This document shows, in pieces, positions 36,279-39,320 of a DNA stretch of 64,000 nt (position 1 is its first letter; each line of letters starts with the position of its first letter). Location of the stretch: positions 930,001 through 994,000 of the forward strand of contig BPUI01000002.1 in NCBI GenBank assembly GCA_019973575.1, written 5' to 3'. Source of the DNA: Gemmatimonadetes bacterium T265. Lineage in GTDB: Bacteria > Gemmatimonadota > Gemmatimonadetes > Gemmatimonadales > Gemmatimonadaceae. The notes under the pieces are model-generated. The model did not search any database, was not told where the DNA came from, and saw only the letters and a program-made list of their open reading frames with translations. The position numbers were made by a program, and so were the translations under genes.

Positions 36279-36560
36279 ATGCCGATCCGTACGATTACCG
36301 TCCGCGGGCGCGCGTGGCGCGTGCTGCCCTCGGGGTTCACGACCGCGAACGTGAACGACGAGCACGGCGTCCTCTTCATCGCCGGCGAGGGCGACCAGCG
36401 GGAGGTGCGCGTGAGTCACTACTCGCCCCTCGGCGAACGCTCGCGCGAGCGGGCGCTCGCCGCGCTCAGCGACGAGTACCTCGCCCAGCTCCTCCGCGAG
36501 TCGCAGCCGAGCGAGACCGCGCCCGAGACGGGGTACCGCAAGAGTCCCCCGGGCGCGTGA
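36279..36560 (+). CDS. Small protein of unknown function
   Basis: A 93-residue soluble protein (MPIRTITVRGRAWRVLPSGF at the start) with a beta-rich first half and a helical second half (RERALAALSDEYLAQLLRES). It lies 20 bases after the E2 stop. Its stop overlaps the start of the PHP gene (GTGA), so the two are probably translated together. No family is recognised. Confidence 0.6.
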   Translation: MPIRTITVRGRAWRVLPSGFTTANVNDEHGVLFIAGEGDQREVRVSHYSPLGERSRERALAALSDEYLAQLLRESQPSETAPETGYRKSPPGA

Positions 36561-37432
36561 GCGAGACGCTCGCCGACGCGCCGCCCCCCGACGTAGCGGG
36601 CACGGTCGACCTCCACACGCACTCGACCGCCTCCGACGGCGTCCTCGCGCCCGCGGCCGTCGTCGAGGCCGCGCACGCGGCGGGGCTCGCGGCGCTGGCA
36701 CTTACCGACCACGACACCGTCGCCGGCGTCGCGGAAGCGCGGGCGACGGGCGAGCAGCTCGGCGTCGCCGTGGTCGCGGGCGTCGAACTCTCCGCCCACC
36801 TCGGCGCGGACGAGATCCACCTGCTCGCGCTGCACCTGTCGGACGTCGACACGATCGCCGGCGAGCTCGCGCGGTTCCGCGACGACCGCGTGACGCGGGC
36901 CGTGCAGATGGTCGCGCGGCTGAACACGTTAGGCGTGCCCGTGACGATGGACGACGTGCTGCGCGAGGCCGGCCCCGGCGCGGTCGGGCGGCCGCACGTG
37001 GCGCGGGCCGTCGTCGCCCGGGGCGGCGCGCTCGACGTGCGCGACGCCTTCGACCGCTTCCTCGGCGACGGCCGCCCCGCCGCCGTCGAGAAGCCGCGAC
37101 TCGACGCGCGCGACGCGATCGCCCTGGCGCATGCGGCGGGCGGGATCGCGGTCTGGGCGCACCCGGGCTCGGCCGGGCGCCGCGACCGCGTCCAACCGCT
37201 CGTCGCCGCCGGGCTCGACGGGCTCGAAGTTTTGCACCCGCGGCATTCCGCCGAGGACAGGCTGCGGCTGAACGCGCTCGTCGAGTTCTTCGGGCTCGTC
37301 ACCTCGGGCGGGTCGGACTGGCACGGGCCGACAGACGTGTGGCGCACGCTGGGCATGATGCGCGTCCCGCCCGCGGTGCTCGACGCGCAACGCGCGCGCG
37401 CGGCGCGGGGGCCTGCCGCGCGCGCGGCCTAA
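36557..37432 (+). CDS. PHP-domain phosphoesterase (RNase AM/YciV-like)
   Basis: A 291-residue metal-dependent phosphoesterase. The metal-binding motifs of the PHP fold are present: DLHTHSTASDG, LTDHDTVAG, GVELSAHL, HLLALH, WAHPGSAG and GSDWHGP. These match the family of 3',5'-nucleoside bisphosphate phosphatases and 5'-3' exoribonucleases. GTG 36557 overlaps the stop of the previous small gene. A TTA leucine codon in the common GTTAGGC context occurs within the gene. Confidence 0.85.
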   Translation: MSETLADAPPPDVAGTVDLHTHSTASDGVLAPAAVVEAAHAAGLAALALTDHDTVAGVAEARATGEQLGVAVVAGVELSAHLGADEIHLLALHLSDVDTIAGELARFRDDRVTRAVQMVARLNTLGVPVTMDDVLREAGPGAVGRPHVARAVVARGGALDVRDAFDRFLGDGRPAAVEKPRLDARDAIALAHAAGGIAVWAHPGSAGRRDRVQPLVAAGLDGLEVLHPRHSAEDRLRLNALVEFFGLVTSGGSDWHGPTDVWRTLGMMRVPPAVLDAQRARAARGPAARAA

Positions 37433-37450: not shown

Positions 37451-38179
37451 TTGCAACTTGCGGGGCGCGTCGCGCTCGTCACCGGCGCCGGACACCGCGT
37501 CGGCCGCGCGCTCGCCGTCGCGCTCGGCGGGCGGGGGATGCGCGTCGCGGTGCACTACCGGAGCGATCCGGCCCAGGCGGAGGAAACGTGCGCGTTCGTT
37601 CGCGCCGCGGGCGGAGTCGCCGAGCCGTTTCCCGCGGACCTCGCCGACGCCGACGCGCCAGCAGCGTTGGTCCGCGCAGTCGCCGAGCGCTTCGGCGCGT
37701 TGGACGTCCTCGTGAATTCGGCGGGCGTGATGGTCCGGACCCCGATCGGCGAGGTCACCCCCGCGGCGTGGGACGCAATGTTCGCGGTGAACCTGCGCGC
37801 CCCATTCTTCTGCGCGCAGGCGGCGGCCGCCGTGATGGGTGAGGACGGTGCGATCGTCAACATCGCCGACCTCGCCGCGTTCGAGACGTGGCCTGCCTAC
37901 GTCCCGCACACGATCAGCAAGGCGGGCGTGGTGCAGATGACTCGGGCCCTCGCGCGCACGCTCGCGCCGCGGATCCGCGTTAACGCGATCGCGCCCGGCA
38001 CGGTGCTGCTCCCGGCGGATTGGGATGCCGCGAGCGCCGAGCGACTGCGTGCGACGACGCCGCTCGCCCGGAACGGGTCGCCCGACGACGTCGCGCAGGC
38101 GATGCTCTACCTGCTCGACGCCGACTTCGTGACGGGCGAGACGATCGTCGTCGACGGCGGTCGCCACGTCCGGACGTGA
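37451..38179 (+). CDS. Short-chain dehydrogenase of the pteridine-reductase type, with altered catalytic residue
   Basis: A 242-residue Rossmann-fold protein beginning at TTG 37451. The cofactor motif is TGAGHRVGRA, whose Arg is typical of NADPH-dependent pteridine reductases. The catalytic part is N-I-A-D140 ... P-A-Y150-V-P-H153-T-I-S-K157-A. The Asp and Lys are spaced 17 apart, exactly as in Leishmania PTR1 (D181 and K198), but His stands where Tyr194 should be; the nearest Tyr is three residues earlier. It may reduce a pterin or dihydrofolate, or have lost activity. Confidence 0.75.
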   Translation: MQLAGRVALVTGAGHRVGRALAVALGGRGMRVAVHYRSDPAQAEETCAFVRAAGGVAEPFPADLADADAPAALVRAVAERFGALDVLVNSAGVMVRTPIGEVTPAAWDAMFAVNLRAPFFCAQAAAAVMGEDGAIVNIADLAAFETWPAYVPHTISKAGVVQMTRALARTLAPRIRVNAIAPGTVLLPADWDAASAERLRATTPLARNGSPDDVAQAMLYLLDADFVTGETIVVDGGRHVRT

Positions 38180-38291
38180 GGCGACGGGCGCCGGACCGCC
38201 CGTGGCCGCCGCTTCCCGGGGAGGCGAGATTTCAGGTAGTAACGCGGCCGTCCGGCGCCCTGCCCGACGTCCGCCCACGACAGGAGATCCC

Positions 38292-39320
38292 GTGGCGACA
38301 ACGCACGATTATGAGGTGGTGGTGGTCGGCGCCGGCCCGGCGGGCATGACGGCCGCGATGTACGCGGGCCGTTCGATGCTCAAGAGCGTGATCATCGAGA
38401 GCGGCGAGCCCGGCGGCGAGCTGCTCAAGACCGAGGTGATCGAAGACTACCCGGGCTTCGAACACGTGCTCGGCCGCGACCTCGCGGAGAAGTTCGCGAG
38501 CCACGCGAAAAAGTTCGGCTGCGAGTTCCACGAGTTCACGGACGTGCTGCACGTCCGGCGCATGGCGGACGGCTCGTTCGAGACGACCGCGCGCAGCAAG
38601 ATCGACGATGCGGAGCACGTATACCGCTCGCCGACGGTGATCGTGACGGCGGGTGGCACGCCCGTCTACCTCAACGTGCCGGGCGAGAGCGAGTACGCCG
38701 GCAAGGGCGTCAGCTACTGTGCGATCTGTGACGGCGCATTCTTCCGCGGACAGACGATCGCGGTCGTCGGCGGCGGCGACGCGGCGGTCGAGGAGGCGGA
38801 CTTCCTCACCCGCTACGCCGAGAAGGTGTACCTCGTCCACCGCCGCGGCGAGCTGCGGGCGTCGAAGATCCTGCAGCAGCGCCTGTTCGAGAACCCGAAG
38901 ATCGAGATGGTCTGGAACAAGGCCGTCGAGGAAATCGCGGGCGAGCTGCCCGACGGCGTGAAGGGGCTCAAGCTCCGCGACACGGTCACCGGCGAGACGA
39001 GCACGCTCGACGTGACCGGCGCCTTCATCTTCATCGGGTTCAAGCCCAACACGGGCGTGATCGACATGCACTACGACCACGACGAGATGGGGTACGTGAA
39101 AACCGACACGAACATGATGGCGTCGATCCCCGGCCTCTTTGCGGCGGGCGACCTGCGGTCGCAGCTCGTCCGGCAGGTGACGACCGCGGTCGGCGACGCG
39201 ACGACCGCGGCGATCGCGGCCGAGAAGTACCTGAAGGCGCTCGAGGACACGCACGGTGACGCGGAGGCCGCCTCGCATGAGGCGCAGGTCGTCGTCGGTA
39301 CGGGCGGGTACGCGGTGTGA
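38292..39320 (+). CDS. trxB: Thioredoxin reductase (NADPH)
   Basis: A 342-residue flavoprotein of the low-molecular-weight class. It has the FAD motif VVVVGAGPAGMTAAMYAGR, the redox disulfide C143-A-I-C146-D, the NADPH motif VVGGGDAAVEEA followed by VHRRGELRAS, and the C-terminal FAD motif GLFAAGDLR. The protein is about 20 residues longer at the C-terminus than Escherichia coli TrxB. GTG 38292 is supported by a CAGGAG site. It probably recycles thioredoxin for the peroxiredoxin at 4025. Confidence 0.93.
   Translation: MATTHDYEVVVVGAGPAGMTAAMYAGRSMLKSVIIESGEPGGELLKTEVIEDYPGFEHVLGRDLAEKFASHAKKFGCEFHEFTDVLHVRRMADGSFETTARSKIDDAEHVYRSPTVIVTAGGTPVYLNVPGESEYAGKGVSYCAICDGAFFRGQTIAVVGGGDAAVEEADFLTRYAEKVYLVHRRGELRASKILQQRLFENPKIEMVWNKAVEEIAGELPDGVKGLKLRDTVTGETSTLDVTGAFIFIGFKPNTGVIDMHYDHDEMGYVKTDTNMMASIPGLFAAGDLRSQLVRQVTTAVGDATTAAIAAEKYLKALEDTHGDAEAASHEAQVVVGTGGYAV

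What the first reader, a model, noticed from the sequence alone, without database searches (positions are those of the whole stretch)
37451..38179. Pteridine-reductase-type SDR with His in place of the catalytic Tyr
D140 and K157 are 17 residues apart, exactly like D181 and K198 of Leishmania PTR1, but the residue at the Tyr194 position is His (H153); a Tyr lies three residues before it. Either a His-based proton relay, a displaced Tyr or a regulatory role is possible. Genomes lacking a classical FolA or thymidylate synthase partner would make this especially relevant to folate reduction.
Basis: partly seen in the sequence, partly recalled or inferred. Interest (0 to 1): 0.55.

Follow-up and report, generated by a model that had tools for sequence, protein, structure and literature searches.

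The report
His-type stand-in for dihydrofolate reductase
Soil bacteria of one phylum mostly lack the usual enzyme that finishes making folate, and carry instead this reductase, whose textbook catalytic tyrosine is a histidine; it is a strong but untested candidate for the missing enzyme.

Summary
Window 37451-38179 (+) encodes a 242-aa classical SDR with D140, H153 and K157 at the places of PTR1 D181, Y194 and K198, plus TGX3RXG, the published PTR1/FolM signature. The His is neither chance nor decay: in 135 Gemmatimonadota orthologues residue 153 is His in 121, Tyr in 13, Asn in 1, while D140 is 135/135 and K157 133/135. Tyr150 is not conserved (105/135), so a displaced Tyr is unlikely. The distribution is telling: clear FolA is absent from this genome and from 360 of 395 phylum genomes, and occurs in 8 of 330 genomes with the SDR against 27 of 65 without it. 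SDR genomes mostly use ThyX; FolA genomes mostly have thyA. One His-type clade has the gene before folB and folK; Tyr-type relatives precede folB-folK or a PTPS gene. Best reading: a dihydrofolate/dihydropterin reductase filling the FolA gap. In PTR1 the Tyr protonates the substrate only in the first reduction (oxidised to dihydro), so an enzyme confined to dihydro substrates could lose it. Activity is untested, and about thirty genomes have neither enzyme detected.

The parts
37451..38179 (+). SDR of PTR1/FolM type with His in place of catalytic Tyr (242 aa, TTG start as called); proposed dihydrofolate/dihydropterin reductase
   Evidence: confident AlphaFold2 model, mean pLDDT 96.3
37481..37504 (+). 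TGX3RXG motif (T11-G18: TGAGHRVG), PTR1/FolM signature
   Evidence: T11, R16 and G18 134/134, G12 133/134 in orthologues; motif as published in PMC1971073
37790..37792 (+). N114, SDR active-site Asn
   Evidence: 135/135
37868..37870 (+). D140, counterpart of PTR1 Asp181
   Evidence: 135/135
37907..37909 (+). H153 (CAC) at the catalytic Tyr position
   Evidence: His 121, Tyr 13, Asn 1 of 135
37919..37921 (+). K157, catalytic Lys
   Evidence: 133/135, two Arg
36314..37432 (+). upstream neighbour: PHP-domain protein (open frame as listed)
   Evidence: PF02811; conserved neighbour in families f1 and f2
38202..39320 (+). downstream neighbour: thioredoxin-reductase-like flavoprotein
   Evidence: PF07992; its cluster found in 59 of 83 loci compared

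Best explanation
The gene encodes an NADPH-dependent SDR reductase of the PTR1/FolM type that reduces 7,8-dihydrofolate (perhaps also 7,8-dihydropterins) to the tetrahydro form, and in most Gemmatimonadota it supplies the dihydrofolate reductase activity that FolA supplies elsewhere. ThyX, which does not oxidise tetrahydrofolate, keeps the demand low. Shown here: the residue pattern, its conservation, the FolA/SDR exclusion, the ThyX/ThyA pattern, and folB-folK linkage in relatives. Inferred: substrate, direction and essentiality. Proposed mechanism (inferred from PTR1): K157, with H153 and N114, positions the nicotinamide ribose; NADPH gives a hydride to C6; water activated near D140 protonates N5. 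The Tyr phenol, which in PTR1 protonates N8 of fully oxidised pterins, is not needed for that step, so His is tolerated or serves as a milder hydrogen-bond partner or relay.
For: PTR1-type signature and D/K conserved. One match per genome in the 53 of 59 relatives that match at 1e-50; 330 of 395 phylum genomes match at 1e-42. FolA over 100 bits in 35 of 395, split 8 of 330 with and 27 of 65 without the SDR, Fisher p = 3e-17, not corrected for kinship. FolA+/SDR- genomes occur in five families (f1, f2, f5, f7, f11). Own genome: no FolA, no ThyA, ThyX present, FolP-like DHPS in a 298-aa open frame. Thirty-three of the 35 FolA genomes have ThyA; ThyX was found in 5 of the 35. His-type SDR followed by FolB and HPPK in L163 and L172. 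Tyr-type relatives fill the same FolA-less place in f11: five of six genomes SDR+/FolA-, the sixth, G064, FolA+/SDR-. PTR1 literature: Tyr194 acts in the first reduction, activated water in the second (passages). E. coli FolM reduces dihydro- but not fully oxidised biopterin (passage).
Against: No activity was measured. Eight genomes have both enzymes. Of 38 genomes with neither at the first thresholds, four turned out to have a TGX3RXG SDR (2 His, 2 Tyr) and two have thyA cut off at a contig end; in the others inspected no such SDR was seen (best matches of 33 of the 38 were read), yet 33 of the 38 have ThyX. Those genomes must use something else or are incomplete. The folB-folK linkage of His-type genes rests on one clade of four loci. 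In the window's own lineage the neighbours scanned are not folate genes. NCBIfam cut-offs are not reached. PMC8996148 states that mutating PTR1 triad residues costs much activity. Other possible DHFRs (DfrB type, RibD-like reductases) were not searched for.
Confidence: 0.65

Rival explanations
1. It is a FolM-like dihydropterin reductase that makes a tetrahydropterin cofactor (for phenylalanine hydroxylase or similar), not a folate enzyme.
For: E. coli FolM is thought to do this (PMC1971073, passage). PTPS genes follow Tyr-type relatives in L055 and L138. Biopterin_H is somewhat commoner with the SDR: 106 of 330 against 11 of 65, p = 0.017.
Against: Own genome has no PF00351 match, and 224 of 330 SDR genomes have none. 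This role does not predict mutual exclusion with FolA.
Confidence: 0.2
2. It is an ordinary carbonyl/ketone SDR in which His took over from Tyr; the folate pattern is coincidence of descent.
For: The fold is a generic classical SDR; the best structural rows are FabG and glucose dehydrogenases. FolA and SDR states are not independent across related genomes.
Against: Invariant TGX3RXG and Asp in place of the SDR Ser; folB/folK/PTPS neighbours; FolA+/SDR- genomes in five families.
Confidence: 0.1
3. It is a degenerate or regulatory SDR without catalysis.
For: Loss of the textbook catalytic Tyr.
Against: The other active-site and cofactor residues are kept over a whole class; Tyr tips L033 and L143 sit among His rows, so the site stays exchangeable between two proton-active residues.
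Confidence: 0.05

Closest known systems
Leishmania PTR1 (pteridine reductase 1)
   Same: SDR, TGX3RXG, Asp and Lys of the D-Y-K triad at the same spacing
   Different: His for Tyr194; no activity shown; genomes here lack FolA, whereas Leishmania has DHFR-TS
FolM (alternative DHFR 1 / dihydromonapterin reductase; E. coli, Brucella 5tgd, 5bt9)
   Same: TGX3RXG SDR (E. coli FolM, PMC1971073); 5tgd and 5bt9 are among the ten best PDB matches to the family profile
   Different: FolM occurs in bacteria that also have FolA (PMC1971073); here the gene mostly stands without it; His for Tyr
NCBIfam NF006598 (PRK09135, pteridine reductase)
   Same: best NCBIfam match, 222.6 bits over 237 residues
   Different: below the curated cut-off of 288
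TmpR, bifunctional dihydropteridine/dihydrofolate reductase (NF012208)
   Same: SDR annotated with DHFR activity; 156 bits
   Different: far below its cut-off of 325

Membership tests
PTR1/FolM-type SDR | TGX3RXG cofactor motif | tested here: met
   T11, R16 and G18 134/134; G12 133/134
PTR1/FolM-type SDR | Asp in place of the SDR Ser, 17 before the Lys | tested here: met
   D140 135/135, K157 133/135
PTR1/FolM-type SDR | catalytic Tyr four before the Lys | tested here: not met
   His here and in 121 of 135; Tyr in 13
PTR1/FolM-type SDR | reduction of (dihydro)pterins or dihydrofolate | not testable with these tools
   needs an assay
NF006598 pteridine reductase | curated score cut-off 288 bits | tested here: not met
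   222.6 bits
TmpR (NF012208) | curated score cut-off 325 bits | tested here: not met
   156 bits
Classical SDR | Rossmann SDR fold and adh_short family match | tested here: met
   PF13561 181 bits over cut-off 27; Z 34-36 to many SDRs
FolA-type DHFR | PF00186 homology | tested here: not met
   Pfam scan of the protein lists SDR families only

The most novel reading that the evidence does not exclude
Most of a bacterial phylum makes tetrahydrofolate with an SDR-type dihydrofolate reductase in which the catalytic Tyr has become His. The loss of Tyr marks an enzyme confined to the second, DHFR-like reduction step. It answers, for this phylum, how ThyX organisms live without FolA.
Probability: 0.45. 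Interest if true: 0.82.

Novelty: new variant of a known kind. Interest (0 to 1): 0.7.

Why it matters
ThyX bacteria without FolA need some dihydrofolate reductase, and the gene was called unidentified in many of them (PMC1971073, passage). For Gemmatimonadota, a survey covered the gap by letting ThyX count as FolA (PMC10581226, passage). This gene is a concrete, testable candidate. It also offers natural His/Tyr pairs at the SDR catalytic position with which to test what the Tyr does in each of the two pterin reductions. If right, these bacteria should be insensitive to trimethoprim aimed at FolA (inference).

Tried and rejected
Displaced Tyr (Y150): rejected, Tyr in 105 of 135, else Phe 13, His 10, Leu 4 and others. 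Scattered decay: rejected, same call. Tyr loss in all SDRs of the genome through base composition: rejected for the 7 paralogues fetched, all Tyr. Fused flavin-type DHFR on FolP: the own FolP-like frame is only 298 aa stop to stop, which I judge too short; this is inference. Fold comparison gave generic SDRs; PTR1 is not among the 50 rows shown in either list, which excludes nothing. Literature: no paper holding both Gemmatimonad and 'pteridine reductase', none with all terms on a His for the catalytic Tyr in pteridine reductases, and nothing on it in the titles and abstracts listed; searches on FolM and on FolA-less ThyX organisms listed no report of this gene. PMC5954106 and PMC8725004 passages gave nothing on the Tyr question. 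Only the held open-access library was searched.

Rows dropped before counts: of 144 aligned rows, 7 outside the phylum and L197 and L201 (other SDRs) were left out of the conservation count, leaving 135 (134 are filled at the N-terminal and most C-terminal columns); the 135 include close relatives. They are a part of the 330 matching genomes, not all. For the FolA count, 15 of 50 genomes with only weak PF00186 matches (under 40 bits) were set aside; counting them would give 21 of 330 against 29 of 65 (my tally). The tree used 125 of the 144 rows.

Full report
What is there. The open frame at 37451-38179 (+) encodes a 242-residue classical SDR (PF13561 181 bits, PF00106 143 bits). Its best NCBIfam models are PRK09135 'pteridine reductase' (222.6 bits, cut-off 288) and PRK09134 (214.7, cut-off 281), so it falls short of both. 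The window lies in a 5.6-Mb, 6-contig genome. Named relatives are Gemmatimonadaceae, the nearest fetched being Roseisolibacter sp. H3M3-2 at 76% identity (L051). An AlphaFold2 model from 91 sequences is a confident, complete SDR (pLDDT 96.3) matching many SDRs at Z 34-36.

The His. Residue 153 sits at the catalytic Tyr position. In 135 orthologues from 11 family codes of the phylum it is His in 121, Tyr in 13 and Asn in 1. His is in f1 (55 of 56), f2, f3, f4, f5 and f6 (all), f7 (3 of 7) and f9 (2 of 3); Tyr is in f8 (2 of 2), f11 (5 of 5) and all seven outside relatives. D140 is invariant (135 of 135), N114 too, and K157 is kept in 133. TGX3RXG, described in print as the motif shared by PTR1 and FolM and differing from the usual SDR motif (PMC1971073, passages), is essentially invariant. 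Position 94, which I place at PTR1 Phe113 from memory of that sequence, is Met (68) or Phe (63). Tyr150 is not conserved. On a tree of 125 rows built without this column, at least six changes of the residue are needed; the Tyr tips L033 and L143 and the Asn tip L183 each stand singly among His rows (some forks are weak).

FolA. The window's genome has no PF00186 match. In 395 phylum genomes, 35 have a clear FolA (over 100 bits). The SDR (E <= 1e-42) is in 330 of 395. FolA is in 8 of the 330 and in 27 of the 65 without it (p = 3e-17 by Fisher, not corrected for kinship). After a profile search of the 38 genomes with neither, two more have the His type (L231, L261) and two a Tyr-type TGX3RXG SDR (L232, L233); the split becomes 8 of 334 and 27 of 61. 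Two of the others have thyA cut off at a contig end. Some thirty remain unexplained. FolA+/SDR- genomes occur in f1, f2, f5, f7 and f11; in f11, five of six genomes have the SDR and no FolA, and the sixth has the reverse.

Thymidylate synthase. ThyX is in 50 of 59 relatives, and absent from all six with clear FolA. Of the 35 clear-FolA genomes, 33 have ThyA, often beside folA by coordinates (for example G041 C1 743754-744539 and 744545-745018), and 5 have ThyX. This fits the accepted logic that ThyA makes dihydrofolate and needs DHFR while ThyX does not (PMC9931769, passage). The own genome also has a FolP-like DHPS frame, so it should make dihydropteroate and need some DHFR; five of the 21 genomes in that call show only the long MetH-like frame.

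Neighbours. In the window the gene lies between a PHP-domain gene and a thioredoxin-reductase-like gene, with a 2-oxoacid dehydrogenase E2 upstream and a metallo-hydrolase and a fumarase-family lyase downstream. None of the eight frames scanned there is a folate gene. The thioredoxin-reductase cluster recurs in 59 of 83 loci. In one well-supported clade of His-type genes (L163, L172, L189, L194; 99%) a folK follows; Pfam confirms FolB then HPPK in the two scanned, L163 and L172. Tyr-type relatives show FolK in five of five f11 loci (FolB and HPPK confirmed in L198), FolB-HPPK-GTP cyclohydrolase I in the Anaerolineae locus L056, and PTPS in L055 and L138.

How it likely works. In PTR1, Lys198 positions the nicotinamide, Asp181 takes a proton from solvent and Tyr194 passes it to the substrate in the first reduction; in the second, dihydro to tetrahydro, activated water supplies the proton, as in DHFR (PMC8996148 and PMC1618733, passages). 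Against this, PMC8996148 also says that mutation of triad residues costs PTR1 much activity. E. coli FolM acts on dihydrobiopterin but not on fully oxidised biopterin (PMC1971073, passage). An enzyme that only ever sees dihydrofolate made by its own pathway could therefore dispense with the Tyr phenol. Histidine can still hydrogen-bond to the ribose or to Asp140.

Rivals. A tetrahydropterin-cofactor role is not excluded, but the own genome has no PF00351 hydroxylase and only 106 of 330 SDR genomes do. A generic ketone reductase or a dead enzyme fits the data badly.

Novelty. A survey of the phylum noted MAGs lacking folA and let ThyX stand in for it (PMC10581226, passage). I found no report of this SDR as the answer, nor of a fixed His at the PTR1-type Tyr (searches, in an open-access library only). 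I file it as a new variant of a known kind: it works like the dihydro step of PTR1/FolM, but fails the Tyr criterion of that family.

Noticed in passing
G067 C1 2369858-2371027, G252 C54 122301-124043, G006 C8 65974-67164: ThyX matches split into two pieces within one long open frame (528, 843 and 474 aa), suggesting in-frame insertions such as inteins in ThyX.
   Followed up: no
f2 genera g49, g50, g54, g71 (e.g. G101, G102, G133, G353): ThyX genomes with neither FolA nor a PTR1-type SDR detected: a possible third dihydrofolate reductase.
   Followed up: partly
L172 and L192, site 157: The catalytic Lys is Arg in two orthologues.
   Followed up: no
window 37889-37891 (residue W147): A Trp just before the active-site helix is kept in 122 of 135 orthologues; possible substrate-pocket residue special to this group.
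   Followed up: no
G002, G005, G008, G011, G012: Only a long MetH-like frame matches Pterin_bind, so these may lack FolP and depend on outside folate.
   Followed up: no
window 37451-39320 and loci of f1-f3, f5, f6: The thioredoxin-reductase-like gene stays next to this SDR in much of the class; a functional tie is possible but unexplained.
   Followed up: no
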